Shown in pieces: positions 17,005 to 52,541 of a DNA stretch of 64,000 nucleotides. Both the position numbers and the translations under genes were made by a program. The stretch lies in the NCBI GenBank assembly GCA_017442315.1, contig JAFRZX010000035.1:1-64000 (forward strand), in the 5' to 3' direction. The notes under the pieces were generated by a model, which ran no database searches, had not been told where the DNA came from, and saw nothing but the letters and a program-made list of their open reading frames with translations. The stretch's first letter is position 1. Each line of letters opens with the position of its first letter. This DNA is from Bacteroidales bacterium. GTDB taxonomy: Bacteria; Bacteroidota; Bacteroidia; Bacteroidales; UBA932.

Positions 17005-17009
17005 ATTAT

Positions 17010-32234: not shown

Positions 32235-33635
32235 CTATATTTCCATCTTCTTCCTCTTCCAGTTAAGGATAGGAAGCAGGAATGCTATTACTGCAGCCCC
32301 TACCCAGAAGATGGAGACATATGTAAAGTCGTATTGCAGGATTTCTCCTGTTACTGCATCCTTGACTGCATTTCCGTCGATCAGCCATCCGCTGATGACG
32401 TTCATCAGACCGGCTGCAATATATGATGCCAGACCGACTATGCCCAGGGCTGCACCTGTAGCTTTGCGGGGAACCAGGTCGACTGCCATCAGGCCACCAA
32501 CGAAGCAGATGAGCACGCCGATTGCGATTCCGAACAGTGACATTGCCAGAATATTCACCAGCCATCCGTCACCTCCATAGAGGAACAAGACGAGGGCTAC
32601 AGATTCCATGATGCCGGCAGTCAGGGCCGGCCACTTCCTGTCACCCTTGAAGACAGTATCGGAAATCCATCCGGCGCACACCGTACCGAGAATTCCGGCT
32701 ACGGTATTCACCGCAATTATCATCGCAGCTTCTTCCAGTCCGAATCCTTTTACTTTCTGCAGAAAGAACATACCCCATTCGTTGATTGCATATCGACTCA
32801 TGTACATGAATGCACTTGAGAGGGCAAGAATCCATACTCCAGGGTTACGCAACACCGCTTTCTGAATCCGTCCGGCATCGGCTTTCGAGACTTCTTCTTC
32901 CTTGGAAGCTTCCTGCTTTTCTCCTGCCAGCACCTCTATGGAAGGAAGACCTTTGCTTTCGGGAGTATCATGGAGCCAGAGCATTATCAGGATGACTCCT
33001 ACCACTCCAGCTATTGCAGCTCCGAAGAATCCCCACTGCCATCCGGCTGCTGAAACCAGCAGACTTACGAATATGAAGGAGAGGCCTTCACCGAAGTTAT
33101 GGGAGGCACTGAAGAAGCCATAGAAGGTACCTCTGATCCTAAGAGGAAACCATCTTGACAATGATATTATGGCCGGTGCTGCTCCCATTGACTGCGACCA
33201 CCCGTTTATGGCCCACATCACAGCAAATGTTACGAGCATTACAGAACTTGCTACACCAGCTGCGCCGTCACTCATTCCTAATATCCCCATGACAAAGTTT
33301 GCCACTGCGGAGACGATAAGTCCCGTAGCCATGAACTTCTTTATATTGCTGTGATCAGCAAGGAAACCATTAACAAACTTTCCGGCAGCATATGCCCAGT
33401 ACAGACATGCTCCAATAAGTCCAAGTTGGGTGGCATTGAGGAAACCGCTGTCAATGATAGGTTGTTTCATCACGTTGAGTGACGTGCGGCAGACATAGTA
33501 TAGACTGTATCCCAGTGTTCCTGCAATGAAGGCCTGGATACGAAGTTTCTTGTAATATCCGTCAATCTTTTCTGCCGGTACTTTTACTCCGGAAGGTTGA
33601 CTGGTTTTATAGAATGATAATAGTCTTTTGAACAT
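32235..33635 (-). CDS. MFS transporter, organophosphate:Pi antiporter (OPA; GlpT/UhpT/UhpC-like)
   Basis: A 466-aa inner-membrane transporter with about twelve hydrophobic segments. The start (YYKKLRIQAFIAGTLGYSLYYVCRTSLNVMKQPI) and the NGWSQSMGAAPAIISLSRWFP block near residue 145 match the OPA family, which exchanges glycerol-3-phosphate or hexose phosphates for phosphate. A hydrophilic loop of about 30 residues (EVLAGEKQEASKEEEVSKADAG) splits the two halves. It is the last gene of the minus-strand run that includes four phosphodiester-glycosidase-type genes, which would release phosphorylated products. A 73-bp repeat element separates it from that run, so co-transcription is uncertain. Confidence 0.85.
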   Translation of the reverse strand: MFKRLLSFYKTSQPSGVKVPAEKIDGYYKKLRIQAFIAGTLGYSLYYVCRTSLNVMKQPIIDSGFLNATQLGLIGACLYWAYAAGKFVNGFLADHSNIKKFMATGLIVSAVANFVMGILGMSDGAAGVASSVMLVTFAVMWAINGWSQSMGAAPAIISLSRWFPLRIRGTFYGFFSASHNFGEGLSFIFVSLLVSAAGWQWGFFGAAIAGVVGVILIMLWLHDTPESKGLPSIEVLAGEKQEASKEEEVSKADAGRIQKAVLRNPGVWILALSSAFMYMSRYAINEWGMFFLQKVKGFGLEEAAMIIAVNTVAGILGTVCAGWISDTVFKGDRKWPALTAGIMESVALVLFLYGGDGWLVNILAMSLFGIAIGVLICFVGGLMAVDLVPRKATGAALGIVGLASYIAAGLMNVISGWLIDGNAVKDAVTGEILQYDFTYVSIFWVGAAVIAFLLPILNWKRKKMEI

Positions 33636-33655
33636 TGAATGATAAAATTTGTGTC

Positions 33656-33728
33656 ATAGATTGCCATGTCAGAACTTCATCCCTCTTCACGCTGTCATTG
33701 TGAGGATCGGAGCGACGTGGCAATCTAT
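33656..33728. repeat. MITE-like palindromic intergenic element
   Basis: A 73-bp element bounded by perfect 11-bp terminal inverted repeats, ATAGATTGCCA (33656-33666) and TGGCAATCTAT (33718-33728). Its right half (TGTCATTGTGAGGATCGG then AGCGACGTGGCAATC) resembles the widespread GATTGCCACGTCGCTNCGCTCCTCGCAATGACA intergenic repeat that I recall from many bacterial genomes. No ORF inside. Only one copy was found in this window. Confidence 0.6.
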
Positions 33729-33736
33729 ACATATTG

Positions 33737-35464
33737 TCAGTACACTACTATAAGATTAGGTACAGAGCGCTCTCCCTCGTGGTCGAACTTCTTGTTGTCA
33801 TAAGGGTGGTTTATGACCCCTGTCTTCTCTGTCCAGAGGGTTGTCGAACCGCCTCCGTCAAGGTTGATCGCATTGGTCATCCCCAGCATATGGCAAATAT
33901 ATGCTGTCTCATAGATAGTTGCTCCGTCAGCTTTGCCTTTGAAACGTCCGTCTATCACCAGCAGATAGGCGTTGCCCTCGTCGTCTGTTCCGAACGCGGC
34001 ACGAGGATGACGCTTGTCATAGAACTGGGCCGATGAATAATGTGTCCTGATCTTCGAGCCCTGCTTCTGTTCCTGAAGCATAGCCTCTATATTGGCTCCG
34101 TCAACCTTGTCACCTGTCAGAAGAGGAACCGCAATCGATCCATCTACGACCAGAAGCGGACCGGATGCCATAGCCTGATCCCAACCTTCACTGACGGCGT
34201 CATACTGCGTGGTGTCGGAAGCTGTATCGATTACTGCTTTCCTGCCCTTGCGGTCCTTCAGACCCATCAGGCCGTCAACGCGGTAGAGTTCCGTAGGATG
34301 AGTATATCCCAGCCTATCATTCTCTTCACGGAAATACACTGAAGGAATCCTCTGCTTCACATGGAAGTAGCCGCCGTTCAGGGCGAAGGCCGCACCGATT
34401 TCCTTGCCTATCTCACTTGGCTTGCCGGCAGTTTCACCCGGTCTGTGAAGGATATCGGTACTGAACTTTTTCATAGGATACTTCACCACGCAGATGCTCT
34501 GGGTAGAGTAGAACATCGGAATCTGGGCATACATGGCCTGAGCGCCTTTGCCAAGGTCTGTTATCTCCCATGATGCATTCACGAATTCGAGCGAGTCCTT
34601 TCCTGAGTTGTCAGGCTGAGGCAGCTCGCCCAGCAGAATAAGCCTTGCAGTATCAAGCTGCGCCGGCTCGCCATAGCATTCGAACATCATGATGCCGTCA
34701 TAACCATTCTCCTTTATGCCGGCCCAGAGAGCCTTATTGTTTATCAGACCTTTGCCTGGTATGAGGTGTCTTTCGTCGGCAAAGTCATAGTCTGACAGAT
34801 GCACTGTCCTTATCTTCCCTTTAGCAACAGCCTTGAGGTAGTCCTCATGGCTCTGATAGAGAAGATGATTGGTGTCAAAGCAAAGTCCGACCTCATCATA
34901 TCCTTCAATCAGTTTCATCATCTCCTCGCCGTTCTGACCAAGGCATGTACGTGGAAGGTTCTCCACGCAGAGGACTGCACCGATTTCCTTGGCGACTGGT
35001 GCCAGTTCTCCGATAGAGGCATGGCTGTTTGCAAGGCGCTGTTCCCTTTCAACCGGTGTAATCGGCTCCGAACTCGGATGAAGAACCAGATACTGTGGCT
35101 GGAAGACTCCGGCCACACGCATCATATCCTTCATATACTGCACATTTTCCGCCCTTTTGCTGTCGTCCAGTACGGAAATATCAAGCTTGCGGGAATATGG
35201 CATATGTACCGACCACACCTTGAGTCCTGAAGCATCAATATCCGCTTTCAAGGCAGCAGCCCTGTCACGGACTCCGGCAGTGTCCTTCCCGATCACATTG
35301 TTCATTGTGACCTCAATGTAGTCCAGCCCGCCGGCCTTGTTCTCCTTCATGGACTCAAGACCGAATCCGGTCCAGCGGCCAATGGATTTGCCGATAGGTG
35401 GTTCTCCTGCCCTTGCCCCGACAAAGGACAAGAGGCAGAAGATGATCAAAATTATACGATTCAT
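33737..35464 (-). CDS. Secreted fusion of sugar-isomerase-like TIM barrel and phosphodiester glycosidase (NAGPA)
   Basis: A 575-aa protein with a Sec signal peptide (about 1-19, ending VGARA). Residues about 20-285 form an AP-endonuclease-2-type TIM barrel as in sugar phosphate isomerase/epimerases (VHMPYSRKLDISV, YLVLHPSSEP, VLCVENLPRTCLGQ, GLCFDTNHLLY, VHLSDYD, GIMMFECYGE), with metal-binding-type Glu, Asp and His residues in place. Residues about 320-575 are an NAGPA domain, the fold of the enzyme that uncovers mannose-6-phosphate by cutting GlcNAc-1-phosphodiesters: AFALNGGYF, PRAAFGTDDEGNAYLLVIDGR and NAINLDGGGSTTLW. The end of the gene is 9 nt from the MITE-like element. It follows the BACON-NAGPA gene by 6 nt. 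Confidence 0.85.
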   Translation of the reverse strand: MNRIILIIFCLLSFVGARAGEPPIGKSIGRWTGFGLESMKENKAGGLDYIEVTMNNVIGKDTAGVRDRAAALKADIDASGLKVWSVHMPYSRKLDISVLDDSKRAENVQYMKDMMRVAGVFQPQYLVLHPSSEPITPVEREQRLANSHASIGELAPVAKEIGAVLCVENLPRTCLGQNGEEMMKLIEGYDEVGLCFDTNHLLYQSHEDYLKAVAKGKIRTVHLSDYDFADERHLIPGKGLINNKALWAGIKENGYDGIMMFECYGEPAQLDTARLILLGELPQPDNSGKDSLEFVNASWEITDLGKGAQAMYAQIPMFYSTQSICVVKYPMKKFSTDILHRPGETAGKPSEIGKEIGAAFALNGGYFHVKQRIPSVYFREENDRLGYTHPTELYRVDGLMGLKDRKGRKAVIDTASDTTQYDAVSEGWDQAMASGPLLVVDGSIAVPLLTGDKVDGANIEAMLQEQKQGSKIRTHYSSAQFYDKRHPRAAFGTDDEGNAYLLVIDGRFKGKADGATIYETAYICHMLGMTNAINLDGGGSTTLWTEKTGVINHPYDNKKFDHEGERSVPNLIVVY

Positions 35465-35470
35465 TTTACA

Positions 35471-36532: not shown

Positions 36533-36613
36533 TGTCCAGCTGCTTGAGCTGGAAGTGACCCCTACAGTGTATGTTCCACCGGCTGGATCTGCCTTGATGG
36601 AGTCAGTTGTCAG

Positions 36614-36616
36614 TCA
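36614..36616 (-). other. Single in-frame TGA between beta-helix and BACON-NAGPA modules
   Basis: The minus strand reads GAC ATG TGA CTG ACA ACT GAC TCC, with no frame change. Removing this one stop would give a continuous lipoprotein of about 1264 aa (39265 to 35471) carrying fimbrillin-like, beta-helix, BACON and NAGPA parts. The first base after the stop is C, a context known to favour some UGA readthrough. Confidence 0.7.
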
Positions 36617-39265
36617 CATGTCTGCAGCTGCCGAAGTAGCAGCCCATGCACCGATTACATTTCCTGTACGCTCGTTGCCAAGCTGGTCTACTGCAAGCAC
36701 TGATGCAGGTACATTTGCGCTTGCAAGAGCAGCAAGTTCAGCAGGACTCATACCTCCTGTAATGGCAGGGTTGCTCTCAGGAAGAAGGAGTGGGCAGACA
36801 CCGTCAGCATTCAGAGCACCGAGCATAGTGCTGTAGTCGAAAGTGTTTGCGCCTGCATTAGTGCCGTCAGCATTATAATATGTAGTACCGTTCTGACAAT
36901 AATACTGCTTTCTCACTCCATTGCTCCCATTATTGACATTATATTTGTCATTAGAGCCTATATTATTTGCAATCAATGAGTTATAAAGATTTATTACACT
37001 ACCGGCATTTTCTGCGTACACGGCATAATGCCCTCCTGTACTATGATTCTTTGTAATAGTACAGCTGATGAGGTCTACAGTGGTTACATTGGCAGCATTG
37101 CCCGAATATGCCAGCACAGCAGTTCCGTGAGCCGAATTCTGTGTGTCATTATTATGGAATGTTGTATTTACACATGAAACGTTAGCGCCACCCGTTCCTG
37201 TTGTTCGTGCATAGATGGCACCGCCACGTCCTTTTGCACTGTTGCTGTCAAAAAGGCTGTTTGTAATGACCACATTGTCGGCATATGTAGAAGATGCCAG
37301 CACGTAAATTGTTCCCCAACTTGTATTGGTATTTCCTTTCCAGATGCAGCGGTCAAACTTATTTGTGGTTTCAATTTTTCCAGCCTTGATTATTGTTGCA
37401 GCTTCCTTCTTTCCTATATTGTTGGTGAAGCTACAGTTCTGATATGTCGCACTTGCATCCTCTGACATAAGCACACCACCCATTGCTGCACCTCCTGTAT
37501 TACCACTCATAACAGAGTTTTTGATAGTAACACCTGAAACATTCAGCAACTTCATGATTGCACCTTCCTTTGATGTGTTGTTGGAAATCACACAATTATC
37601 AAGAGTAGCATTCAATGTCTGACCTGCTGTTGCTGTTCTGAGGTATGCACCACCGCCATAGGTTGTTGCTGTGTTATTTGTAATTGTTACATTCGACACA
37701 TTTGCAGTCATCTGGGCACCAGCAGACAGGTAGAGATACAGGCCAGCAGCATTGTTGGCGGTGTTGTTGGAGATTTCCGAGTCGCTGAATGTGAGTTCAG
37801 AACCGTCTGTGAACCATACTGTTCCGTTTGCACTGGCAGTGTTTTCTGTGAAAGAGCAGTTCTTGATGTCAACCTTTGAGTTTGAACCGTAGATACCTGT
37901 TGCATTTACTGTTTTGTTTCCTGTGAATGTCATGTCGGAAAGCGACAGTTCTGTACCTACGGCAGCCATAGCACCAGTGTAGTTTTCAAGATTGGTCTCA
38001 TTTATCTGCCAACCGCCTTTGACATTGGTCGATGCGGCCTTGGTAACTGTAAAGCCTGACATCTTCACTGACTTGCCTGCAACCTTAGGGGCAGCCACCA
38101 GTACAACATGGTTACATACGTCGTTACCGCTGAGAATTGTCTTGTTTGCGACAGGATTGCAGATGCTTCCGCCAGCAGCAGGGTATCCTCCGATGATGGT
38201 CACGTTCTTATCGACGATGAACGCTTTGTGTGCAGCCTCCGTAGCTGTAGTTACTTCCGCTGCAACATTGTCATCTGCATCCACAACCTTTCCCGAAATG
38301 AAAGTATCAGGAACATAAGTACCGGCTCCGACGTAGATCACGTCGCCGTCCTTTGCCTTGCTGAGGGCATTTGAAAGGGTAGTGGCGCTTGCCCAGCTAA
38401 GTCCGTCTGCTTCGGTAGTACCGCTTTCTGTCACATACCATACTCCGCCTTCGATTGCAACAGTGAATACTTTTACCGTTGCTGCCTCGATTACGTTGAT
38501 AGAGTTGGATTTCCTGATGAATACATTTCCATGCTCGTTGGCTCCTTCGTGGTTGCTGTTGTGGAAATATATGGAGAAGTCCTCATAGCTTCCAGTCGGA
38601 ACAGGTATATAAAACTTCATGTCTGTCGCTGCTGTCAAAGCATCGAACTTCATGTCCACATATGATCCGTCTTCGTCGTTTTCACCAGCCTTGAGAATAC
38701 CCTCATACTCATAAGTGGTGATACCTGATATGTCCAGCTTTGATGTGTAGAATCTGAAGGCATCAGTACCTGCCGGCACATTCTTTACGTCAAATGCAAA
38801 GAGTCCGCCGGCATGGGTGAATGAAGCCTTGCCATCAGTGATGACAGCTACCATAGGACCCATTACCTGTCCCTCATTCCACTCGTATTCGTTTGGAAGA
38901 TAGACACGTGGCTGGCCTGTTGAATTGACAACCGTATGGTTGGCGTGTGACGGATATATAGCCCATTCTGAGATTGTCTCTCCATTGTGGAGGGTTCCCT
39001 TGAATTCAGCTGAAGTTGCGCCGTCAGTTCCTGTATATACGAACTCCCTGTATACTCCTGAAGATGTGAGAACTGAAATCTTGTCGCCGTTGCTCCATGT
39101 AAGCTTGGTGTATGCATCGTCGATACCTACCTTAGTTTCAGGAATCTTGGCTGTAAGTACGGAGTTATACTCTATTTCTTCAGTTACCGGAGCATCCAGT
39201 TCCGGTTTTGCGCAGCTGAAGAGCACAGCAGCTGCAAGTGATATGAGAATGAATGTCTTTTTCAT
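36614..39265 (-). CDS. Right-handed beta-helix surface lipoprotein with fimbrillin-like N-terminus
   Basis: An 883-aa lipoprotein; start at the ATG at 39263-39265, which gives a signal peptide with lipobox VLFSC (Cys18). Residues about 30-310 look fimbrillin-like (TKVGIDDAYTKLTWSNGDKISVL, GGLFAFDVKNVP, YIPVPTGSYEDFSIYF). Residues about 320-870 are parallel beta-helix repeats with many Asn ladders (NNTANNAAGLYLYL, NNTATTYGGGAYLRT, NNTSKEGAIMKLL) and a choice-of-anchor-Q-type C-terminus (AVDQLGNERTGNVIGAW). The stop is TGA at 36614-36616, after which the same frame stays open for 380 codons. Beta-helices of this kind include polysaccharide lyases and binding proteins; no catalytic residues could be assigned. 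Confidence 0.75.
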   Translation of the reverse strand: MKKTFILISLAAAVLFSCAKPELDAPVTEEIEYNSVLTAKIPETKVGIDDAYTKLTWSNGDKISVLTSSGVYREFVYTGTDGATSAEFKGTLHNGETISEWAIYPSHANHTVVNSTGQPRVYLPNEYEWNEGQVMGPMVAVITDGKASFTHAGGLFAFDVKNVPAGTDAFRFYTSKLDISGITTYEYEGILKAGENDEDGSYVDMKFDALTAATDMKFYIPVPTGSYEDFSIYFHNSNHEGANEHGNVFIRKSNSINVIEAATVKVFTVAIEGGVWYVTESGTTEADGLSWASATTLSNALSKAKDGDVIYVGAGTYVPDTFISGKVVDADDNVAAEVTTATEAAHKAFIVDKNVTIIGGYPAAGGSICNPVANKTILSGNDVCNHVVLVAAPKVAGKSVKMSGFTVTKAASTNVKGGWQINETNLENYTGAMAAVGTELSLSDMTFTGNKTVNATGIYGSNSKVDIKNCSFTENTASANGTVWFTDGSELTFSDSEISNNTANNAAGLYLYLSAGAQMTANVSNVTITNNTATTYGGGAYLRTATAGQTLNATLDNCVISNNTSKEGAIMKLLNVSGVTIKNSVMSGNTGGAAMGGVLMSEDASATYQNCSFTNNIGKKEAATIIKAGKIETTNKFDRCIWKGNTNTSWGTIYVLASSTYADNVVITNSLFDSNSAKGRGGAIYARTTGTGGANVSCVNTTFHNNDTQNSAHGTAVLAYSGNAANVTTVDLISCTITKNHSTGGHYAVYAENAGSVINLYNSLIANNIGSNDKYNVNNGSNGVRKQYYCQNGTTYYNADGTNAGANTFDYSTMLGALNADGVCPLLLPESNPAITGGMSPAELAALASANVPASVLAVDQLGNERTGNVIGAWAATSAAADM

Positions 39266-39290
39266 ATTGTAAAAAAATGTTATGATTAGA

Positions 39291-39431
39291 TTACCATGCT
39301 CCTTCAGAAGGATTATAATCCTGAAGATCCGAGCATTCCTGAGTTGCATCTGTGTATGATGCGCAAAGAATTCCTTCAATAAGCATATTGCATATGCCTA
39401 TTGTTGGAGAAATATAGCTTTTCTTTTCCAT
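39291..39431 (-). CDS. 46-residue peptide of unknown function
   Basis: ATG at 39429-39431 to TAA at 39291-39293. It starts MEKKSYISPTIGICNMLIEG and ends in a polar tail (QECSDLQDYNPSEGAW). I recognise the pattern (M-K-x-Y-I-x-P start, short hydrophobic middle with Glu, polar Gly/Trp end) as that of many short uncharacterised Bacteroidetes peptides, from memory only. Three cysteines are present. It sits in the operon, 24 nt after the BACON-NAGPA gene and 25 nt before the beta-helix gene, where a long gap would otherwise be unexplained. Confidence 0.5.
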   Translation of the reverse strand: MEKKSYISPTIGICNMLIEGILCASYTDATQECSDLQDYNPSEGAW

Positions 39432-39455
39432 TTTGTAGTTATTTAATTGATAGAA

Positions 39456-40967
39456 TTATTTCTGTATGATAGCCAGTCCGTTGACTACAGCTCTTTCTGT
39501 GATGGCTCCGTCCTTTTTGGAGCGAGGTTCGTTCCTCAGCTCAAATCCTGCAGACGAATTGACTGCAAATGTTGACGATCCGCCACCGTCAAGGTTGATT
39601 CCGTTGTATGCTCCCATGGCCTTGAGAATCCTTCCGAGTTCAGAATAGTCGGCTCCATTGCTGTGGCTCTCCTTTCTTCCGTCCATGACGAGTATGATTA
39701 CCTTGTTTCTGTCGGCAGAGACTCCAATTGCTGTACGTGGGTCTGTCTTACTGCTTGCCTTCGCTGTGGTCACTGCACCTGATGTCAGTACTTCCTGTCT
39801 TCCTCCAATCGCTTCCTGAATGTCGCTTTTCACGTTCTGGTATGCGGATTGTGTCAGGATGCGTGCCGTGCCGTCCTTCATGATGGCGAACACAGTACAA
39901 TGCTTATCGTGAAAGCTATCCTTGAGGCAGACACCTCTCTTGTACATCACGCCCTGCAGCAGGTTGTTGGCACTTTCTGCGCTTATGTCGCTGCTGCCGA
40001 GGAAAAAGTCTCCGTTGACACCGCCGTACACTTCTTTGCCTCTGCTTGTCTTAATGGCAGCAAGCTGATCCCTTACCGTCTGGAGTCCTGTAACTTCTTC
40101 TGAAGTTGCCTTTATTTCGGAATCGTCATCGTTCCTGCTAGTTGCAGCTATTGTGACATCTCCGTCAATCTTCACTTCAAAGATGTATGCATAATATGGC
40201 AGAACGCTCCCGCTTACCTTGCTGGTGTATTTGATTTCCAGAACATCGACACCCTCTGTCGGTGAGTAGCTTCTGTCAGTTGTAACGATGTTAACCAAGT
40301 CTCCTGTGTTGTACGCAAAGCGGCGGCCCATAGGAGTGCTAGCACCTGCGAAGATTGAATTGTCGTTCTTCTGGCTTACTTTGATGGTGACTTTCTCAGT
40401 AGCAGTGCTTATGCTGACCTCACCATTCTGAGTAACTCCCGAATAGTTTACATCTGTGCTTATTACAAGTGCCGAAGAGTTCTTCTTGGTTGCTGTAACC
40501 CAGTCAGGATGTCCGCTTATTTCCCAGTTTGCCGGAGAACTTACGGTAATCTCTTCCTCTCCACCGGTCACTTCAAATTCTACGGATTCTTTTCCTGTCT
40601 TCAGTCCTCCTGCTGATGCAGCCTGACGTACTGTAAGTTCATGAATGTCTTCTGTACCTTGAATGAGAAATGCTATCTTCCCGTCTCTTGAAGTCTCAGA
40701 AGGATTGGCAGCTACCTTGAATGATATTATATCGGCAGCTTGTGCCGTGACATCGGTTATCCAGTCAGTCCTGGATGTTGGTGTATATTCTACGTCTGAT
40801 ATCAGCATCGCAGTGAATTCACCTCCGGCGGAGCTTACCATAACCGGGTTTTCGGCAAACATGAATGAGTATTCCTTCTGCTGCTCATCAGGATTTTCAC
40901 CATTGCAGGATATCATGCTTCCTGCAATGGTGATGGCCAATAACATATTTAGTAGAAGATCTTTCAT
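39456..40967 (-). CDS. Lipoprotein with tandem BACON domains and phosphodiester glycosidase (NAGPA)
   Basis: A 503-aa lipoprotein with lipobox SMISC (Cys21) and an acidic tail. Two BACON-type domains cover about residues 35-120 (VSSAGGEFTAMLISDVEYTP, DWITDV) and 120-205 (GGEEEITVSSPANWEISGHPDWV). The NAGPA domain fills about 225-503, with GGVNGDFFLG, PRTAIGVSADRNKVIILVMDGRK and NGINLDGGGSSTFAV; the motifs found in active family members are intact. It is predicted to cut sugar-1-phosphodiester bonds at the surface or in the periplasm. It follows a beta-helix gene, with an inverted repeat in the 62-nt gap. Confidence 0.85.
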   Translation of the reverse strand: MKDLLLNMLLAITIAGSMISCNGENPDEQQKEYSFMFAENPVMVSSAGGEFTAMLISDVEYTPTSRTDWITDVTAQAADIISFKVAANPSETSRDGKIAFLIQGTEDIHELTVRQAASAGGLKTGKESVEFEVTGGEEEITVSSPANWEISGHPDWVTATKKNSSALVISTDVNYSGVTQNGEVSISTATEKVTIKVSQKNDNSIFAGASTPMGRRFAYNTGDLVNIVTTDRSYSPTEGVDVLEIKYTSKVSGSVLPYYAYIFEVKIDGDVTIAATSRNDDDSEIKATSEEVTGLQTVRDQLAAIKTSRGKEVYGGVNGDFFLGSSDISAESANNLLQGVMYKRGVCLKDSFHDKHCTVFAIMKDGTARILTQSAYQNVKSDIQEAIGGRQEVLTSGAVTTAKASSKTDPRTAIGVSADRNKVIILVMDGRKESHSNGADYSELGRILKAMGAYNGINLDGGGSSTFAVNSSAGFELRNEPRSKKDGAITERAVVNGLAIIQK

Positions 40968-40986
40968 TTATGCTTTGTATTATGTG

Positions 40987-41022: not shown

Positions 41023-41029
41023 TGTTGAT

Positions 41030-43591: not shown

Positions 43592-43608
43592 GATATGATT
43601 ATTAGTTG

Positions 43609-45351: not shown

Positions 45352-45352
45352 T

Positions 45353-46276
45353 TTAATATTGTAAGATCACAAGTCCGTTTCCTACTGATGGCTCAAGTCC
45401 CATATTGCTAGGCTTGTTGATCATCTCGAAAAGATTCAGTGAGTCTTCATTGCGTTGGAATGCAGATACATTGTCTCCTTTGTTAAGTGTCATTGCGTTG
45501 CATGCTCCGCAACCTTTAAGGACCTTGGCAAGATCGTCACAGCTGATACCGTTGGAATAGAAGAAGTCACCGCCGTCCACTGCAACCAGATATACTGTGT
45601 TTCCACCTTCATCCACTCCTACAGCAGTCCTGGCAGTAGCATCGGCATCGGTTTGAGCCAGAATGTAGCCGTTCTGCAGGAGCATGGAGCTTCCGCTGAC
45701 TCCTTCTGTGATCTTGTCTTTCCTGCTGTCGAATTCTGATGCTTCAAGACATTGTGCTGAACCATCCTTCATTATAGCGAAGAAAGCCTTGTCAGTTCCA
45801 ATTTTAGATGTGTGTGCTTTTCCATTGTGATAGAGCAGGCCTTTAGGTGCACCTGTGTCGGCTGAAAATGCGCTTCCGCTTATACCTCCCATAACCAGAT
45901 ATGTTCCCTGGTTCTCTATGGCAGCAGCTTGTGCTGTAAGTTTCTCGGATGTACTGAATTTCATGTCATCTCCAGGTACGCATACCTGGACCATGGCAGG
46001 TGCAAGCTCTATCCTGTAGATGTACATCTGCATTGCATGGCTGGATGAATTCAGATAGCCCATGCTCAGAAGGCTTACACCATCCATTATCTTGGTCTGA
46101 GTGTCATACTTCACGTGCGTGATATAATCTTCCGAACCATTGACAATCATCTGGCCGAATTCAGTAGATGCGCTGCGTGTATAGTAATCTGGTTTGTCGA
46201 ACTCATCCTTTCCGCATCCGAAAGCGACGGCAAGCATGAGTGCAGCACTTGTAAATTTGACTATAATATGTTTCAT
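45353..46276 (-). CDS. Degenerate NAGPA-fold lipoprotein, likely a binding protein
   Basis: A 307-aa lipoprotein with lipobox AVAFGC (Cys21) followed by GKDEFDKPD. The ATG at 46276 is used; a TTG three codons up is less likely. It aligns along its length with the BACON-NAGPA proteins (YITHVKYDTQT, AMQMYIYRIELA, AFFAIMKDGSAQ, ARTAVGVDEGGNTVYLVAVDGGD), but key motifs are changed: NGDFF is SGSAF, and LDGGGSS is LNKGDNVS. It should be catalytically dead. It lies directly downstream of SusD, the position of surface glycan-binding proteins in such operons, which suggests an enzyme fold reused for binding. Confidence 0.7.
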   Translation of the reverse strand: MKHIIVKFTSAALMLAVAFGCGKDEFDKPDYYTRSASTEFGQMIVNGSEDYITHVKYDTQTKIMDGVSLLSMGYLNSSSHAMQMYIYRIELAPAMVQVCVPGDDMKFSTSEKLTAQAAAIENQGTYLVMGGISGSAFSADTGAPKGLLYHNGKAHTSKIGTDKAFFAIMKDGSAQCLEASEFDSRKDKITEGVSGSSMLLQNGYILAQTDADATARTAVGVDEGGNTVYLVAVDGGDFFYSNGISCDDLAKVLKGCGACNAMTLNKGDNVSAFQRNEDSLNLFEMINKPSNMGLEPSVGNGLVILQY

Positions 46277-46289
46277 GTCTCTCAATCGT

Positions 46290-47561
46290 TTAGTAGCCAG
46301 GATTCTGGGTAAGATTTCCGTTTACTTTTCTTTCTGCTTCAGGAATTGGCATGAGGGTCTGGTATTCCAGAATACCGAGAGTCTCCACTGCTTTGCCAAG
46401 TCTTACTAGATCGTACCACCTGTGTCCTTCACACAGAAGTTCAAGTCTTCTTTCCTGAAGTATTGCATCTATGAATTCTGCTTCTGTTGCAGGATATACT
46501 GCAGGAAGACCGCGGAATGCCCTGAGTTCGTTCAGACGCGGCAGACCATTGGCAAGTCCCTGTGCTTCAGCGCTTATCAGATACATTTCTCCAAGACGGG
46601 ATATTACAACAGGGTCTGTACCTTTCTGACCGCTTGGATATTTGTTGATGAAGTTCAGGTTGTCCATGGTGGTGATTGAAATCTCTTTTCTGTTGTCCTC
46701 GTCGGCATACATGTTCATTACCTCTTTTGCCGGAGCATATACATAGCTTCCTGAATTAGGATGATTGTATGAGTAGAACAGTGTACTTATTGCAATGCTT
46801 GATTCGATTGTCAGACAAGAGAATGCGAATATTACTTCGTTGTTATGTCCTCCTCTGAAAATCTTGTCGTATGAATCAAGTCCGTATCTTGCATCAGCGA
46901 TGAGGGATTCTGCCAGTCTTGCGGCTTCTGCCTTGTTGCCTGTATAGAGAGCGACTCTGGCTTTAAGTGCCTTTGCTGCATCGGATGAAAGATAATTCTG
47001 ACTTACAGGTGTACCTAGAAGGTTGATAGCCATGTCAAGTTCTTCGATGATGAACTGCCATACTTCTGCAGCTGGTGTGCGTGATACCTTTTCATCTGTG
47101 TTGAACCTCATCAGAGGTACATCACCATATCTTGTTACAAGACACATGTGGATGTATGCACGGAAATAATGGCATTCTCCAAGAACAACGTTCTTTTCAT
47201 TTCCTTCAGGCAGCTCCTGAGCGATGGAAAATACATTGTTTACCTGCATCAGGGCTTTGTAATAGCCTTGCCATGCATCTTCCATGAGAGCGTTATTGCC
47301 GCTTGAAAGTGAATTGATAAGGTCGAGTGAATTTGTGCTCTGCTTTGTAGTGAGTTCTCCTCCGAACAGATCGAACATTATGTATGATTCTGTTCCCGGA
47401 CGCTCCTGGACATTGCAGTACATACCGCTTCTGAGTGCCTCTATATCTTTGGTGTCAACTGATCCCGGAGACACTGCCGAATGCGGATTCAGTTCCAGCA
47501 TACTGTTGCATGATATGGCAGACAGTATTGAAAGAATTGATATTATTATATTGCGTTTCAT
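46290..47561 (-). CDS. SusD-family surface substrate-binding lipoprotein
   Basis: A 423-aa SusD-like lipoprotein, shorter than the other SusD in the window. Lipobox SAISC (Cys18). Family features: IEALRSGMYCNVQ near residue 45, EDAWQGYYKALMQVNNVFSIA near residue 95, LGECHYFRAYIHMCLVTRYGDVPLM near 130, VISRLGEMYLISAEAQGLANG near 325, and LQERRLELLCEGHRWYDLVRLGKA near 370. It starts 12 nt after SusC ends. Together they form the import complex of the phosphodiester-glycosidase locus. Confidence 0.95.
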   Translation of the reverse strand: MKRNIIISILSILSAISCNSMLELNPHSAVSPGSVDTKDIEALRSGMYCNVQERPGTESYIMFDLFGGELTTKQSTNSLDLINSLSSGNNALMEDAWQGYYKALMQVNNVFSIAQELPEGNEKNVVLGECHYFRAYIHMCLVTRYGDVPLMRFNTDEKVSRTPAAEVWQFIIEELDMAINLLGTPVSQNYLSSDAAKALKARVALYTGNKAEAARLAESLIADARYGLDSYDKIFRGGHNNEVIFAFSCLTIESSIAISTLFYSYNHPNSGSYVYAPAKEVMNMYADEDNRKEISITTMDNLNFINKYPSGQKGTDPVVISRLGEMYLISAEAQGLANGLPRLNELRAFRGLPAVYPATEAEFIDAILQERRLELLCEGHRWYDLVRLGKAVETLGILEYQTLMPIPEAERKVNGNLTQNPGY

Positions 47562-47573
47562 ATTCTGACGGGA

Positions 47574-50500
47574 TTAGAAGGTTATGTTTACTCCGAGCTT
47601 GTAGATACGTGGAGAAGGCACTCCATATTGGTCTATACCTATCTTTGACGGATCCAGGCTTGTTGAAATCTCAGGGTCCCATCCTCTGTATCTGCTGATC
47701 AGTGCAAGGTTTTCTCCCTGAACGAATACTCTGGCGCTCTTCATTTTCATTGCATCTGTCCACTTCTGAGGAAGAGTGTAGGAGAGCATCACTGATTTCA
47801 GCTTGATGAATGAAGCATCCTGAAGATAATAGGTCGATGCCTTGCTGTTGTTGCCGTGGTATGAGTAGATGGCACGCGGATATGCATTTGTGCTGCCCGG
47901 ACCTGTCCATCTGTTGTCGCACCATTCCTGAAGGAGACCCTGGTAGTTACCCATTCGGGTAGGACCTGCCATCCATCCTGCATATATGTCAGCACCATAG
48001 CTGTATGTGAAGAATACGCTGAGGTTCAATCCTTTCCATGAGAATGAGTTGTTCCAACCTCCTGCAAAATCAGGGTTAGGTGAACCGACCATTATGCGGT
48101 CAGAGTCATTTATCAGGCCGTTCCCGTCCAAGTCATAGTATTTTATATCTCCGGCTCTAACGCCCATGTCATATTGAGGGGCAGGAACTTCTCCGTCATA
48201 CTGGTAGATGCCATCAAACTGCAACAGATAGAATGAGCCTACTTCTTCGCCTACCTTGAGTGCATGATTGGATCCTATCGGCACAATGTCTTCGTTGAGA
48301 AGTTTGGTGAGCTTATTCTTGTTGTGAGCTATGTTGAATGATGAACTCCAATGGACCGGGCCGAGGTCTACATGTGTGTTGAGAGTGAACTCCACTCCAT
48401 AGTTCCTCATCGATCCGATGTTGGCCAGCATCGATGTCTGTCCTGAAGTAGCATGCATTGGCATGTTGTAGAGAAGGTTACCTGTGTTTTTCAGGTATGT
48501 GTCGAATATCATGTTCACCTTTCCGTTGAGGAATGAAAGGTCAAAACCGAAGTCATATTGGTCAGCTGTTTCCCACGTAAGGTTCTCATTTCCTTTAGAG
48601 CTGACAGCGATTCCACTGATTCCGCCATAGTTGGATCCTCCGCTGATCAGAGGCATCCATCCATAGTTGCTGATACCGTCCTGGTTACCGGTCTTTCCGT
48701 AGCTGAGGCGCAGCTTGAAGTCTGTTGACGGTGAATTCCAGAAATCTTCCTTTGAAATGTTCCATCCGAGGGATACTGAAGGGAATACACCCCAACGGCA
48801 CTGAGGTGCGAAACGGCTTGAACCGTCGGCACGTACTGTGGCATTGAGCACGTATCTGTCTTTCCATGATACATTTGCACGTCCATACCATGATTCCATG
48901 GCATATTCTGAGAGACCTCCTGTCACACCAGCTATTTCTGCTGCAACGCCGATTGTGTCGAATGAAGGAGAAGGGAAGCCTTGGGCATCTATACTGTTAG
49001 AACGTGAACTGGTCTTCTGGAATGAATGTCCTGCCATTGCACCGAATGTCCAGTCACCCCATGTCTTGTCATAGTTGAGATAGGTCTCAATAAGATTGCT
49101 CATGAGGAAACGGTTTTTCTCTATGATACGTCCGCCGTTTTCCTTATAAGGGTGATTTGAGTTATAGTAAAGATAGTCAAGTGTGTATCCTGCGTCGGTG
49201 TTGAAGGATGCCTTGAATTTGAGTCCGTCTATGATGGTCGCTTCTGCCCAGATCGCTCCAAGGTATCTGGCATTGTCCACATACGATGTCTGTTCGGACA
49301 GTATCTGTACCGGATTGTGACGGGAAAGTTCATTCGTTCCTCCGAGGAAATAGTCACCGTCGGTTTTGTACGGTCTGTCGAACGGACGCTGTTCAACGGC
49401 ACGTGCGACGATAGTCGAACCTATGTCGGCACCAGGAACACGGTTGTTCTTCATGTAGTTGCCGCTCATGTTCGCTCCGACGTTGAGCCATTTGGCAACC
49501 TGATGTGTCAGATTTACCTTGAGGTTGACCTTTGTAATGTCGTTGGTCTTGATGACACCTTCCTGATAAGCGAAGTTCGCTCCTACGTAGATCTTTGTCT
49601 TGTTGGTTCCGCCGGTGAATGAAAGGTCTGCGCTATGTGACATTCCCAGTCTTGTGATGACATCAAGCCAGTCTGTATCAGGAAGTCCTGCATATGGATT
49701 GCGGATGTGCTGTATGTAGCTGCTGTTTCCTGGGGTATAGCCGTTCTGACGGTTATAATTGTCTATACCTTCATTATATACTTCTATCCAGGACTCCGAA
49801 TCCGCATATCTGATTCTGTTCCTGTTGTTGAATTCAGATATACCGAAGTTATAGTTGACCTTGATTTCTGATTTACCTTCGCGTCCCTGCTTTGTGGTTA
49901 TCAGGATTACACCGTTTGTTCCTCTTGAACCGTAGATTGCTGCAGATGCTGCATCCTTCAGCACTTCAATGGATTCTATGTCGCTGAGGTTCAGTACGGA
50001 AAGTGAACTCAGGTCTTCTCCGAAACTGTAGAGTGAACCGCTTTCGTTATTGAGAGGAATTCCATCTATGACATATAGAGGCTGGTTGCTTGCGCTCAGA
50101 GAGCTTGAGCCTCGTATGCTCATTCTTTCTGAAGTACCGAGGTTACCAGAACATGTCGAAATATTTACACCCGCAACTCTACCTTGAAGAAGTTCAGTAG
50201 GGGAGAGAGCAGTGCGGGCAGAATTTTCATCCGGTTTGAATGATGTAATGGCATTTGTGACGAGTTCTCTTCTCTGGGAACCGTATGCTACTACTACAAC
50301 GTCGTCCAATACATTTGCATCAGAAGCAAGTGTTACATCAATCTGCTGTGAAGGATTCTGGACAGTGATGTATTGGGTCGCCATTCCGAGATAGGCGATT
50401 TCCAGAGTGACAGGAGCCGGTTGTCTGCAATCCAGAGAAAAATTACCGTCCAGGTCCGTGATTGCCCCGTTTTGTGTGCCCTTGACTATGACAGATGCTC

Positions 50501-50876
50501 CGATTACCGGTAGTCCGATTTCATCTTTGACGCATCCTTTTACATAGGCATTGGATTTTGATGTTTCTGCTTTGGGAGGGGCAGATTTAGTTATGGAAAT
50601 GATGTCTCCGTCAATGGTATATGATACTTCGGAACCGGAGAACACAGCATCCAGCACAGTGCGGATGTCAGCCTTCCGTACATTTATGCTGATAGGTCTG
50701 TCTACATTTACCTCACTTGAACGTATCGAGAATGAGTATCCATAGTCTTTCTGGATCTTCTCGATCACTTCCCTTATTGGCGTATCCTCAGCTTTCAGGG
50801 TTATCTCCTGAGCTTTCATGGAGACAGCCATGAACAAAGAAAGCGCAATAATCAAAGGTTTCTTCAGGTAGTCCAT
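47574..50876 (-). CDS. SusC-family TonB-linked outer-membrane transporter with STN signalling domain
   Basis: An 1100-aa transporter. After the signal peptide (about 1-22) comes an STN domain (about 25-95: ITLKAEDTPIREVIEKI, DADIRTVLDAVFSGSEVSY-type strand-helix pattern), which in this family contacts a FecR-like anti-sigma factor. A carboxypeptidase-regulatory-like domain follows (about 110-195, KGTQNGAITDLDGNFSL), then VLDDVVVVAYG, the plug (SIRGSSSLSASNQPLYVIDGIPL, IYGSRGTNGVILITTKQG) and the barrel, ending YKLGVNITF. The STN domain fits the ECF sigma and FecR genes directly upstream. Confidence 0.95.
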   Translation of the reverse strand: MDYLKKPLIIALSLFMAVSMKAQEITLKAEDTPIREVIEKIQKDYGYSFSIRSSEVNVDRPISINVRKADIRTVLDAVFSGSEVSYTIDGDIISITKSAPPKAETSKSNAYVKGCVKDEIGLPVIGASVIVKGTQNGAITDLDGNFSLDCRQPAPVTLEIAYLGMATQYITVQNPSQQIDVTLASDANVLDDVVVVAYGSQRRELVTNAITSFKPDENSARTALSPTELLQGRVAGVNISTCSGNLGTSERMSIRGSSSLSASNQPLYVIDGIPLNNESGSLYSFGEDLSSLSVLNLSDIESIEVLKDAASAAIYGSRGTNGVILITTKQGREGKSEIKVNYNFGISEFNNRNRIRYADSESWIEVYNEGIDNYNRQNGYTPGNSSYIQHIRNPYAGLPDTDWLDVITRLGMSHSADLSFTGGTNKTKIYVGANFAYQEGVIKTNDITKVNLKVNLTHQVAKWLNVGANMSGNYMKNNRVPGADIGSTIVARAVEQRPFDRPYKTDGDYFLGGTNELSRHNPVQILSEQTSYVDNARYLGAIWAEATIIDGLKFKASFNTDAGYTLDYLYYNSNHPYKENGGRIIEKNRFLMSNLIETYLNYDKTWGDWTFGAMAGHSFQKTSSRSNSIDAQGFPSPSFDTIGVAAEIAGVTGGLSEYAMESWYGRANVSWKDRYVLNATVRADGSSRFAPQCRWGVFPSVSLGWNISKEDFWNSPSTDFKLRLSYGKTGNQDGISNYGWMPLISGGSNYGGISGIAVSSKGNENLTWETADQYDFGFDLSFLNGKVNMIFDTYLKNTGNLLYNMPMHATSGQTSMLANIGSMRNYGVEFTLNTHVDLGPVHWSSSFNIAHNKNKLTKLLNEDIVPIGSNHALKVGEEVGSFYLLQFDGIYQYDGEVPAPQYDMGVRAGDIKYYDLDGNGLINDSDRIMVGSPNPDFAGGWNNSFSWKGLNLSVFFTYSYGADIYAGWMAGPTRMGNYQGLLQEWCDNRWTGPGSTNAYPRAIYSYHGNNSKASTYYLQDASFIKLKSVMLSYTLPQKWTDAMKMKSARVFVQGENLALISRYRGWDPEISTSLDPSKIGIDQYGVPSPRIYKLGVNITF

Positions 50877-50900
50877 GTTTTTTGATGAGTTGTTAGTATG

Positions 50901-51905
50901 TTAATTATTAGGTGAAATCACGATTGTGTCATGTTTCTTTGATATTATCATTGTGTCGTTGCTGTTCAAAGCCTTGAGAATCTTTTCCAACCCTTCGTTG
51001 TGGATGAATGAGGCATAGTACTGTGTCTTGGCAAGTGTGTCATCCTCAATCAGAATCTCTACGTCAAAATGTCTTTCCAGATCTTCGGCGATATCTTTCA
51101 GACTCTGGTTTATGAAGCGTATGTTATGGTTGTTTTGCCATGCGCCATATGTGGCGGTGTTGATACGATAATCTTCGACAGTGCCGAATGTTTTGTTATA
51201 TCGTATGAGGTCTCCCGGAACAAGTACTCTTGAGAAACCGTTTTTATCGTCTGTGTCTTCGATACTGACGCTTCCGCTGATGAGTGCGACTTCAATATTA
51301 TCTCTTTCGGCGAATGCCTTGACTCCGAATTGTGTACCATGAACCTTTACGTTCATACCGGAAGCTGATACAATGAACGGTTTCTTCCTGTCGGTTGTAA
51401 CGTCTGCGAAGATTTCGCCGTCTATGTAGATAGTGCGTGTTTCTGAATCAAATCTTGAAGGGTAGAGAACCTTGGTGTCGGAATTCAGCCATAACGATGT
51501 GCCGTCCGGGAGTATGATCCGTTCTGTTTCGCCTCTTTTGGCATATGCCTCGTACCATTGTACGGGCTCCTTCGGCTTCAGGACCATCAGGAATACAGCA
51601 AGTACGGCTGCTGCGGCTGTTGCGCCGAACCAGCCGAACATCCTTTTTGTTTTCTGAAGTTTCTTGCGATGGGTTTCTTCCCTGTCTATGAATATGTCCA
51701 GGTATCTCTCCGAACGTCTGAGACTTTCCTGATCGTCATCAGGTGCAGAATTGTCGAGAAGACGTTCAAATATCTTATCGTAGCATGGATCTGCGATGTT
51801 GTCTGTCAGCCATGAGCGTACGATGGTTTCTTCTTCTTTTGAGCATTGACTGTCCATATATCTGTCAAGGACAGTCAGCAGTTCATTCATTGATTTATTC
51901 TCCAT
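50901..51905 (-). CDS. FecR-family anti-sigma factor
   Basis: A 334-aa inner-membrane protein. N-terminal cytoplasmic helical region (about 1-85) that would hold the sigma factor, one transmembrane helix (about 88-108, MFGWFGATAAAAVLAVFLMV), then the periplasmic FecR domain (about 120-220: KRGETERIILPDGTSLWLNSDTKV, GEIFADVT, VHGTQFGVKAF) and a DUF4974-type C-terminal domain (about 255-330: NQSLKDIAEDLERHFDVEI, LEKILKAL) that meets the STN domain of SusC. It lies between the sigma gene and SusC, the standard order for this signalling trio. Confidence 0.93.
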   Translation of the reverse strand: MENKSMNELLTVLDRYMDSQCSKEEETIVRSWLTDNIADPCYDKIFERLLDNSAPDDDQESLRRSERYLDIFIDREETHRKKLQKTKRMFGWFGATAAAAVLAVFLMVLKPKEPVQWYEAYAKRGETERIILPDGTSLWLNSDTKVLYPSRFDSETRTIYIDGEIFADVTTDRKKPFIVSASGMNVKVHGTQFGVKAFAERDNIEVALISGSVSIEDTDDKNGFSRVLVPGDLIRYNKTFGTVEDYRINTATYGAWQNNHNIRFINQSLKDIAEDLERHFDVEILIEDDTLAKTQYYASFIHNEGLEKILKALNSNDTMIISKKHDTIVISPNN

Positions 51906-51968
51906 ACCATATAGTTAACATATATAGTATGCAGAAATGAAGAAAATACGTAAAAAAATCTGCACTTT

Positions 51969-52541
51969 TTACCAAAGTGCCATAACAATAAGAAGAATTG
52001 ATATTGGGAGGTGTTCCCTTATATATGAAAGTGAGTTTTCTATATGCTTTTCTACAGTACGTACGGATATGCCCAGTTGTTCTGCAATTTCAGCATTGGA
52101 GAGTTTCTGGGTGCGGCTCATCTCGAATATGTTTCTCCTCTTTTCCGGCATTGATGCGACAATCCGTTCGATCTTCTTTTCCATATCCCTGAAAGATAGG
52201 ATGTTGTCTACATTTACAGTATTGTCGACAATGTCTACCTCAAGATTTTCTGTCTTATTCTTGAATTCGCTTCTCAAGTAATAATATATCTCGTTCCTGA
52301 CAGCTATCAGGATGTAGTTCTTGAGGCTTCTGTTCTCGTCTAGCCTTTCTCTAAGTACCCAGATGCGCATGAACACATTCTGAATGAGATCCTCCGCAAC
52401 GTAGCTGTCTTTAAGCATACGTTTGGCAAACGAAAGAAAAATGGGATAATAGTGCTCGAACAAACATTTGAATGCACTTTTATCACTGTTTTTCAATCGC
52501 AGAATCAAACTCTTTTCGTCTATAATTCCGGATGTGTTCAT
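51969..52541 (-). CDS. ECF-type RNA polymerase sigma factor
   Basis: A 190-aa sigma factor of the Bacteroidetes SusC-linked ECF group. Region 2 covers about residues 20-85 (KCLFEHYYPIFLSFAKRMLKDSYVAEDLIQNVFMRIWVLRE, with interruptions), and region 4 about 125-178 (MPEKRRNIFEMSRTQKLSN, then AEIAEQLGISVRTVEKHI as the helix-turn-helix). It is the first gene of the minus-strand locus. With the FecR and STN-SusC genes it should switch on the operon when substrate binds. A vegetative promoter sits almost at its ATG. Confidence 0.93.
   Translation of the reverse strand: MNTSGIIDEKSLILRLKNSDKSAFKCLFEHYYPIFLSFAKRMLKDSYVAEDLIQNVFMRIWVLRERLDENRSLKNYILIAVRNEIYYYLRSEFKNKTENLEVDIVDNTVNVDNILSFRDMEKKIERIVASMPEKRRNIFEMSRTQKLSNAEIAEQLGISVRTVEKHIENSLSYIREHLPISILLIVMALW

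What the first reader, a model, noticed from the sequence alone, without database searches (positions are those of the whole stretch)
32235..52541. SusC/SusD locus built around phosphodiester glycosidases and beta-helix lipoproteins
Seen: ECF sigma, FecR, STN-SusC, SusD, then four NAGPA-fold genes, three beta-helix genes, and an OPA transporter, with no classical glycoside hydrolase. Known: NAGPA enzymes cut sugar-1-phosphodiester bonds; OPA transporters move glycerol phosphate or hexose phosphates. Inference: the locus may take up and process a phosphodiester-bearing glycan, such as teichoic-acid-like polymers, phosphoglycan capsules, or GlcNAc-1-P-modified glycoproteins. I know of no characterised polysaccharide utilisation locus of this kind.
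Basis: partly seen in the sequence, partly recalled or inferred. Interest (0 to 1): 0.8.

Follow-up and report, generated by a model that had tools for sequence, protein, structure and literature searches.

The report
SusC/SusD locus of phosphodiester glycosidases
This gut bacterium carries an uptake locus that pairs a nutrient-importing outer-membrane pump with relatives of the human enzyme that uncovers the mannose-6-phosphate tag; one of these relatives has lost its family's key residues and probably now only binds the food molecule.

Summary
In detail: 32235-52541 (minus strand) encodes ECF sigma, FecR, STN-SusC, SusD, NAGPA-family proteins, beta-helix-type proteins and an OPA-type permease, with no glycoside hydrolase. 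Details change the picture. (1) The last NAGPA is fused to a TIM barrel. (2) The NAGPA just after SusD has lost family motifs, as in 11 of 11 related loci whose SusD is at least 57% identical; these form one clade. (3) The third NAGPA and a helix gene are halves of one 1262-aa protein in the nearest relative, split here by an in-frame TGA. (4) Synteny is real: NAGPA directly follows SusD in 35 of 44 loci analysed, but this SusD is largely confined to one genus, and the OPA gene is kept in only part of the loci. Best reading: a SusCD uptake system for a molecule with sugar-1-phosphodiester bonds, with a dead NAGPA as surface binder, intact NAGPAs as cutters and, in some loci, an OPA permease for a phosphorylated product. 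The substrate is unknown; teichoic acid is one guess. Closest known: Flavobacterium phosphate utilisation systems (PusCD), which also have ECF/FecR genes and polygalacturonase-like lipoproteins but, in the text searched, no NAGPA. New variant of a known kind.

The parts
51969..52541 (-). ECF sigma factor (P0012)
   Evidence: Pfam Sigma70_r2 1.3e-14, Sigma70_r4_2 2.3e-14
50901..51905 (-). FecR anti-sigma protein (P0011)
   Evidence: FecR 2.9e-17, FecR_C 3.9e-13
47574..50876 (-). SusC with N-terminal STN domain (P0010)
   Evidence: STN, CarbopepD_reg_2, Plug
46290..47561 (-). SusD lipoprotein (P0009)
   Evidence: SusD_RagB 4.3e-24; homologs at E<=1e-60 in 38 of 250 genus genomes, own included, and in 1 of 295 order genomes, the own one
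45353..46285 (-). NAGPA-family lipoprotein without the family's motifs, predicted pseudoenzyme and surface binder (P0008; likely start at 46276)
   Evidence: NAGPA 2.8e-21; DGR and LDGGGS lost here and in 11 of 11 loci with SusD >=57% identical; degenerate rows one clade 100/99; pN 0.243, pS 0.757 against L102
43609..45351 (-). BACON + beta-helix-type lipoprotein, helix3 (P0007)
   Evidence: BACON 1.2e-05; POMP_repeat over cut-off; profile A3 to 1RU4
41030..43591 (-). beta-helix-type lipoprotein, helix2 (P0006)
   Evidence: no Pfam family; 29% identity to P0007 in A3
39456..40967 (-). 2x BACON + NAGPA lipoprotein, motifs intact (P0005)
   Evidence: BACON 1.7e-07, NAGPA 1.4e-30; phmmer to 3OHG 3.9e-22
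36614..39379 (-). beta-helix-type lipoprotein, helix1 (P0004; likely start at 39265); N-terminal part of a split gene
   Evidence: 58.6% identity to residues 10-882 of a 1262-aa protein in L102
35471..36532 (-). BACON + NAGPA without signal peptide (P0003); C-terminal part of the same split gene, same frame after an in-frame TGA
   Evidence: 63.8% identity to residues 910-1262 of the L102 protein; NAGPA 2.3e-34; TGA
33737..35464 (-). TIM barrel (AP_endonuc_2) fused to NAGPA (P0002)
   Evidence: AP_endonuc_2 1.2e-35 and NAGPA 2.4e-32; full-length fusion in L036, L037, L038, L039 at 85, 85, 73, 66%; seven motif patterns all found in 6 of 8 TIM domains scanned
32235..33635 (-). OPA-type MFS permease (P0001)
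   Evidence: MFS_1 1.2e-42; GlpT 1PW4 1.8e-48; GlpT, UhpT and PgtP cut-offs not met

Best explanation
A SusC/SusD uptake system for a molecule held together or decorated by sugar-1-phosphodiester bonds. Steps: (1) ECF sigma, FecR and STN-SusC switch the operon on when substrate is bound (inferred from the domain set). (2) At the surface the NAGPA lipoprotein that has lost its motifs, encoded right after SusD where surface glycan-binding proteins are often encoded (recalled), holds the substrate with its old cleft; the BACON/beta-helix lipoproteins help (inferred; the motif loss is shown). (3) Intact NAGPA lipoprotein(s) cut sugar-1-phosphodiester bonds, leaving a free sugar and a phosphate on the other side (activity inferred from the family). 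(4) SusCD imports fragments; the TIM barrel-NAGPA protein finishes them, in the periplasm in the window strain (inferred from the lack of a lipobox). (5) Where present, the OPA permease takes a small organophosphate (glycerol phosphate or hexose phosphate type) into the cytoplasm. With no glycoside hydrolase in the locus, the backbone is more likely phosphodiester-linked, or the substrate small, than an ordinary glycan with phosphate side groups.
For: NAGPA directly after SusD on the same strand in 35 of 44 loci analysed (five pairs of the 35 have identical NAGPAs). Gene order kept over 39-83% SusD identity. Motif loss sits in the SusD+1 copy: window plus 11 of 11 loci with SusD >=57%, while 23 of the 24 other SusD+1 NAGPAs are intact by a DGG test; another copy with DGGGS is present in each such locus whose contig reaches it: window, L102, L105, L107, L108, L109, L036, L038, L040. 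Solved uncovering enzymes (6PKI, 6PKG, 6PKU) have NG, RTA-G, DGQ and INLDGGGS at the same places. In five genus genomes 9 of 14 NAGPA sites lie within 10 kb of a SusD against 16.4% coverage (binomial 8e-5), 4 of 9 (p 0.046) without the two genomes already known to carry this SusD clade. Companion phosphoesterases in relatives: purple acid phosphatase-like genes in L036, L037, L038, L105, EEP-type by BLAST in 13 of the 40 loci L102-L141, histidine phosphatase in L110. OPA next to NAGPA in L063, L065 and L048, and a SusCD-TIM-GDPD-OPA locus L052.
Against: No activity, binding or expression data. Seven of the nine loci without NAGPA after SusD have a GDSL esterase there, with GH3 near in six, so NAGPA is not indispensable to this SusCD clade. 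OPA is kept in only part of the loci; of 39 OPA genes located in the 40 OPA sites fetched, 2 had NAGPA next door. Outside the genus NAGPA is mostly not beside SusCD: 3 of 29 sites (SusC/D by BLAST only and some contigs short, so a lower bound). In L106-L109 the NGD part of the motif set is still there. ECF and FecR genes also occur in phosphate-starvation loci, so they do not speak for substrate sensing alone. Folds were not modelled.
Confidence: 0.45

Rival explanations
1. Phosphate scavenging: the locus is a gut counterpart of the Flavobacterium phosphate utilisation systems, gathering organic phosphorus from mixed phosphodiesters (lipid head groups, nucleic acids), with sugar a by-product.
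For: PUS loci pair SusCD-like PusCD with phosphodiesterases or phosphatases instead of CAZymes, and PUSIII/IV have abundant lipoproteins modelled on a polygalacturonase; PUSI has an ECF sigma factor and PUSIII a sigma factor with a FecR-like regulator (PMC8115612; passages and section 16). Relatives here hold PAP-like, EEP-type, GDPD and histidine phosphatase genes.
Against: NAGPA leaves the phosphate on the other partner rather than freeing it (recalled for the human enzyme); the 12 window proteins include no phosphomonoesterase family; NAGPA is not mentioned in the PUS paper's main text.
Confidence: 0.28
2. NAGPA domains in this genus act on something other than sugar phosphates, or mainly bind; the locus takes up an ordinary or peptide-linked glycan processed by enzymes encoded elsewhere.
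For: [quoted passage not shown] the SusD+1 NAGPA looks like a binder; 7 relatives have a GDSL esterase instead, 6 of them with GH3; BACON and TIG/NHL domains abound.
Against: In the window three NAGPA copies keep the motifs; phosphoesterase genes recur beside them.
Confidence: 0.23
3. Chance or assembly neighbourhood: unrelated surface genes lying together.
For: The window is a draft-genome contig and one gene is split by a stop.
Against: Same order in many separate assemblies.
Confidence: 0.02

Closest known systems
Flavobacterium phosphate utilisation systems PUSI-IV / PusCD (PMC8115612; abstract, passages and section 16 seen)
   Same: SusCD-like pair beside phosphodiesterases or phosphatases instead of CAZymes; ECF sigma (PUSI) and sigma + FecR-like genes (PUSIII); polygalacturonase-like lipoproteins (PUSIII/IV); inner-membrane organophosphate transporters reported
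   Different: induced by phosphate depletion; phosphodiesterases of PF00149, PF16670 and PhoA types; NAGPA, PF09992 and DUF2233 do not occur in the main text; here repeated NAGPA, one of them without motifs, and a TIM-NAGPA fusion
SusC/D loci without CAZymes but with phosphodiesterases (Lapebie 2019, PMC6499787; one passage seen, main text searched for NAGPA: none)
   Different: PF09992 not counted there; nucleic acids suggested as target
Uncovering enzyme NAGPA (6PKI, 6PKG, 6PKU) and DUF2233 structure 3OHG
   Same: profile A2 hits 3OHG at 5.5e-43 and 6PKI at 5.9e-18; motifs shared by P0005, P0003 and P0002
   Different: BACON, beta-helix or TIM fusions; P0008 lacks motifs; substrate unknown
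Levan and dextran utilisomes of B. thetaiotaomicron (PMC7618045; abstract and passages seen)
   Same: surface binding protein and surface enzyme assemble on SusCD
   Different: ordinary glycans and glycoside hydrolases; the levan binding protein has Ig-like domains and its own levan-binding domain, not the enzyme's fold

Membership tests
Polysaccharide utilisation locus | tandem SusC/SusD pair | tested here: met
Polysaccharide utilisation locus | linked CAZyme (glycoside hydrolase or lyase) | tested here: not met
   no GH/PL family over cut-off in the 12 proteins; CAZy itself not searched
Polysaccharide utilisation locus | dedicated sensor-regulator genes | tested here: met
   ECF + FecR + STN domain on SusC
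Phosphate utilisation system (PUS) | SusCD-like pair beside phosphodiesterase or phosphatase genes | tested here: met
   NAGPA family, in place of PF00149/PhoA types
Phosphate utilisation system (PUS) | induction by phosphate depletion | not testable with these tools
   needs transcriptomics
NAGPA / uncovering enzyme (PF09992) | profile match over curated cut-off | tested here: met
   all four proteins
NAGPA / uncovering enzyme (PF09992) | NG-F, R(T/A)A-G, DGR, LDGGGS motifs | tested here: met
   met in P0002, P0003, P0005; see next row for P0008
Catalytically competent NAGPA, P0008 alone | same motifs | tested here: not met
   GGISGSAF, VDGG, LNKGDNVS
NAGPA / uncovering enzyme (PF09992) | phosphodiester glycosidase activity | not testable with these tools
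   needs enzyme assays
GlpT / UhpT / PgtP | NCBIfam curated cut-off | tested here: not met
   best 240.6 of 407.75 bits; GlpT 219.5 of 632.55: OPA-like only
CbiR cobamide phosphodiesterase | NCBIfam equivalog cut-off | tested here: not met
   50.9 of 105 bits
Xylose isomerase-like / endonuclease IV TIM barrel | PF01261 match and kept His/Asp/Glu motifs | tested here: met
   1.2e-35; all seven patterns in window, L036-L040; 5 of 7 in L052, 3 of 7 in L051; ligand roles recalled
Right-handed beta-helix | fold | tested here: inconclusive
   sequence support only; no model

The most novel reading that the evidence does not exclude
A class of 'phosphodiester-glycan utilisomes', largely confined to one genus of gut Bacteroidales, in which the enzyme encoded next to SusD, a relative of the lysosomal uncovering enzyme, was turned into a surface substrate-binding protein in a clade whose operons hold further active copies, and in which a TIM barrel-NAGPA fusion and, in some loci, an OPA permease complete a route that imports the phosphorylated half of each cut bond without any glycoside hydrolase.
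Probability: 0.33. Interest if true: 0.72.

Novelty: new variant of a known kind. Interest (0 to 1): 0.55.

Why it matters
Bacterial NAGPA domains are common and, as far as I recall, almost uncharacterised. A conserved locus that ties them to a dedicated importer, a paralogue without motifs and, in part, a phosphate-ester permease gives a concrete handle on what they cut, and would extend Bacteroidota foraging from glycosidic to sugar-phosphodiester bonds (capsules, teichoic acids, phosphoglycans). The enzyme-to-binder change is a testable evolutionary series.

Tried and rejected
Promoter/terminator scan at shuffle level (32 against 31.2, 14 against 15.2); the sigma-70 consensus does not describe Bacteroidota promoters (recalled), so not used. 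OPA as a diagnostic partner: rejected, since most OPA sites fetched in the family sit beside other genes. TIM barrel as an isomerase or as CbiR: not decided. The idea that the NAGPA-SusCD link is general in Bacteroidales: not supported, 3 of 29 sites outside the genus, though L148 (another family) repeats ECF-FecR-SusC-SusD-NAGPA. ECF/FecR as an argument against the phosphate-scavenging rival: dropped on checking, because PUS loci have such genes too; I lowered the best explanation from 0.50 to 0.45, raised that rival from 0.22 to 0.28 and lowered the novel case from 0.35 to 0.33 for that reason. Ten paper searches (24: 0 papers; 25: 25 of 2,509 listed; 31: 4; 32: 9 listed of 10; 45: 15 of 933; 46: 3 listed of 4; 72: 9; 73: 4; 81: 12 of 111; 103: 10 of 54) showed no title or abstract start about a SusCD/NAGPA locus; the library lacks most subscription papers, and Das 2013 on DUF2233 is not held. 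Structure prediction never ran.
Full report
Observation. The twelve genes are present, on one strand, at the stated coordinates, and Pfam confirms ECF sigma, FecR, STN-SusC, SusD, four PF09992 domains and an MFS permease. None of the twelve proteins has a glycoside hydrolase match over a curated cut-off. The permease belongs to the OPA group by NCBIfam ranking and its PDB hit GlpT 1PW4 (E 1.8e-48), but meets no GlpT, UhpT or PgtP cut-off. The beta-helix claim rests on POMP repeats in two of the three proteins, about 29% identity among them and a profile hit to pectate lyase 1RU4 over 52 positions (E 7.7e-5). The structure server was full at all thirteen attempts, so the fold is not modelled.

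(a) P0002 (33737-35464) is a fusion of a xylose isomerase/endonuclease IV-type TIM barrel with NAGPA. Full-length fusions occur in L036, L037, L038 and L039 at 85, 85, 73 and 66% identity; in L040 the TIM barrel stands alone. Seven patterns around residues that correspond to metal ligands in this superfamily (roles recalled) are all found in 6 of 8 TIM domains scanned; L052 and L051 gave 5 and 3 of the 7. The nearest solved relative by sequence is MJ1311 3WQO (2.5e-11); CbiR is the top NCBIfam name but below its cut-off. (b) P0004 and P0003 are in one frame, parted by a TGA; in the nearest relative, L102, they are one 1262-aa helix-BACON-NAGPA protein. Whether the stop is natural or an assembly error is unknown. 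(c) P0008, the NAGPA just downstream of SusD, lacks the family motifs: GVNGDFF reads GGISGSAF, DGR reads DGG, LDGGGSS reads LNKGDNVS. Solved uncovering enzymes have NG, RTA-G, DGQ and INLDGGGS at these places.

Synteny. SusD homologs at E<=1e-60 occur in 38 of 250 genomes of the genus, the own genome included, and in 1 of 295 of the order, the own genome; L040, labelled Alistipes, suggests the clade is not wholly confined to the genus. I fetched 40 of the 44 other SusD sites and added four loci held already (L036, L038, L040, L059). The next gene after SusD on the same strand is NAGPA in 35 of these 44 loci; five pairs among the 35 have identical NAGPAs. The nine others have an EEP-type gene (L059, L111) or a GDSL esterase (seven). 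L036, L038, L040, L102 and L105 repeat SusC-SusD-NAGPA-helix-helix-NAGPA; L107-L109 do so at 58% SusD identity. The TIM barrel and OPA are narrower: both in the window, L037 and L040; TIM with two other MFS genes near by in L038; TIM without OPA in the 1.3 kb and 0.45 kb held after it in L036 and L039; TIM at a contig end in L105; neither in L142-L144.

A pseudoenzyme series. All 11 loci with SusD at least 57% identical to the window's, and the window itself, have an NAGPA after SusD without DGR and DGGGS; in four of them (L106-L109) the NGD motif is still there. Of the 24 other SusD+1 NAGPAs 23 are intact by a DGG test (L129 reads DGGGF) and one, L113, is degenerate. In a tree of 48 rows the window and ten of these loci (L105 left out as a copy of L036) form one clade at 100/99, and L113 is a separate loss. 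Each degenerate locus whose contig reaches far enough has at least one more NAGPA with DGGGS: window, L102, L105, L107, L108, L109, L036, L038, L040; L103, L104 and L106 end first. P0008 and its L102 ortholog differ at 24.3% of nonsynonymous and 75.7% of synonymous sites, so the protein is under constraint (synonymous sites are saturated). Constraint, motif loss and a place where surface glycan-binding proteins are often encoded (recalled) suggest that it now binds. Binding is inferred.

Is the NAGPA-SusCD link more than chance? In five genus genomes, 11 of 17 NAGPA genes (one of the 17 below the Pfam cut-off) and 9 of 14 sites lie within 10 kb of one of 105 SusD matches, which cover 16.4% of about 11.8 Mb (binomial p 8e-5); within 5 kb it is 8 of 14 sites against 9% (8e-6) (sizes rounded). 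I picked the five genomes, and two (G284, G285) were already known to carry this SusD clade; without them it is 4 of 9 sites, p 0.046, so the excess outside this clade is modest. Outside the genus the link is weak: NAGPA occurs in 27 of 119 order genomes searched, own included and one below the cut-off, and 3 of 29 sites fetched have SusC/SusD in the stretch by BLAST (some stretches end at contig ends, and a 473-aa SusC-like ORF in L166 was not counted). One of the three, L148, is ECF-FecR-SusC-SusD-NAGPA in another family.

Company kept. Purple acid phosphatase-like genes in L036 (Pfam), L105, L037 and L038 (100, 87 and 53% identical to it); GDSL-GxDLY esterase in L038 and L040; EEP-type genes by BLAST in 13 of the 40 loci L102-L141, over the Pfam cut-off in L059, in one of two L118 genes scanned and in L124; TIG/NHL lipoproteins; histidine phosphatase in L110. 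OPA lies next to NAGPA in L063 and L065, 2 of 39 OPA genes located in 40 sites fetched, and in L048. L052 has FecR-SusC-SusD-propeller-TIM-unknown-GDPD-OPA, and L097/L098 the same without TIM. GDPD with OPA there points to glycerol phosphate as one possible cargo. The own genome's fifth NAGPA (C43, 69% to the P0002 domain) sits with GDSL, GH3, GH127-like and metallophosphoesterase genes.

Mechanism. My reading is given under best explanation; the shown steps are gene content, order, motif loss and constraint, and the rest is inference. A lipobox-like pattern near the N-terminus was found in P0004-P0009 of ten proteins scanned; in P0002 the pattern matched only inside the first hydrophobic stretch, which I do not count. 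That suggests membrane-anchored P0004-P0009 and a soluble periplasmic P0002; in L038 and L039 the P0002 ortholog starts with a lipobox-like sequence, so its place may vary.

Comparison with the known. [quoted passage not shown] Lidbury 2020 (PMC8115612, passages and section 16) describes Pi-induced PusCD loci with phosphodiesterases and polygalacturonase-like lipoproteins; its table also lists an ECF sigma factor in PUSI and sigma and FecR-like genes in PUSIII, so the window locus resembles PUS more than I first thought. NAGPA, PF09992 and DUF2233 do not occur in the main text of either paper. White 2023 (PMC7618045, abstract and passages) shows that surface lipoproteins assemble on SusCD. Ten paper searches (several lists capped) showed no SusCD/NAGPA locus. 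So this is a new variant of a known kind.

Organism. An unnamed Bacteroidales draft genome of 2.8 Mb in 173 contigs; named relatives come from sheep colon, goat cecum, water buffalo colon, an uncultured Bacteroidales record and one 'Alistipes sp. Zagget8' record. I suspect a Cryptobacteroides-like genus from its size and species richness; that is a guess and was not tested.

Noticed in passing
window 11629-16090 (neighbours 7352-25635): A second SusC/SusD pair with DUF4493/DUF6359, DUF4906, DUF4984, LRR and subtilase proteins and no CAZyme among the nine proteins scanned: looks like a protein- or peptide-directed SusCD locus.
   Followed up: partly
window 36614-36616: In-frame TGA splitting a helix-BACON-NAGPA gene that is intact in L102.
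   Followed up: partly
L117, L118, L119: These distant SusCD-NAGPA loci lie next to dnaK; in the window dnaK (29355-31280) is also close by, on the other side of the locus.
   Followed up: no
L052; L097 and L098: SusC-SusD-PQQ propeller-(TIM)-unknown 342 aa-GDPD-OPA: a likely glycerophosphodiester uptake locus.
   Followed up: partly
L114, L121, L126, L132, L133, L134, L136 (and L113): A SusCD subclade that has an opposite-strand GDSL-GxDLY esterase after SusD in place of NAGPA, with GH3 in six of the seven; L113 still has a degenerate NAGPA before the same genes, as if caught in the loss.
   Followed up: partly
window 52565-53026: Thioredoxin lipoprotein 23 bases upstream of the ECF gene, same strand; perhaps co-transcribed.
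   Followed up: no
L162-L169: Eight NAGPA proteins of 1385-1421 aa, one per genome, in other Bacteroidales families, with no SusCD pair counted near by: a different NAGPA role.
   Followed up: no
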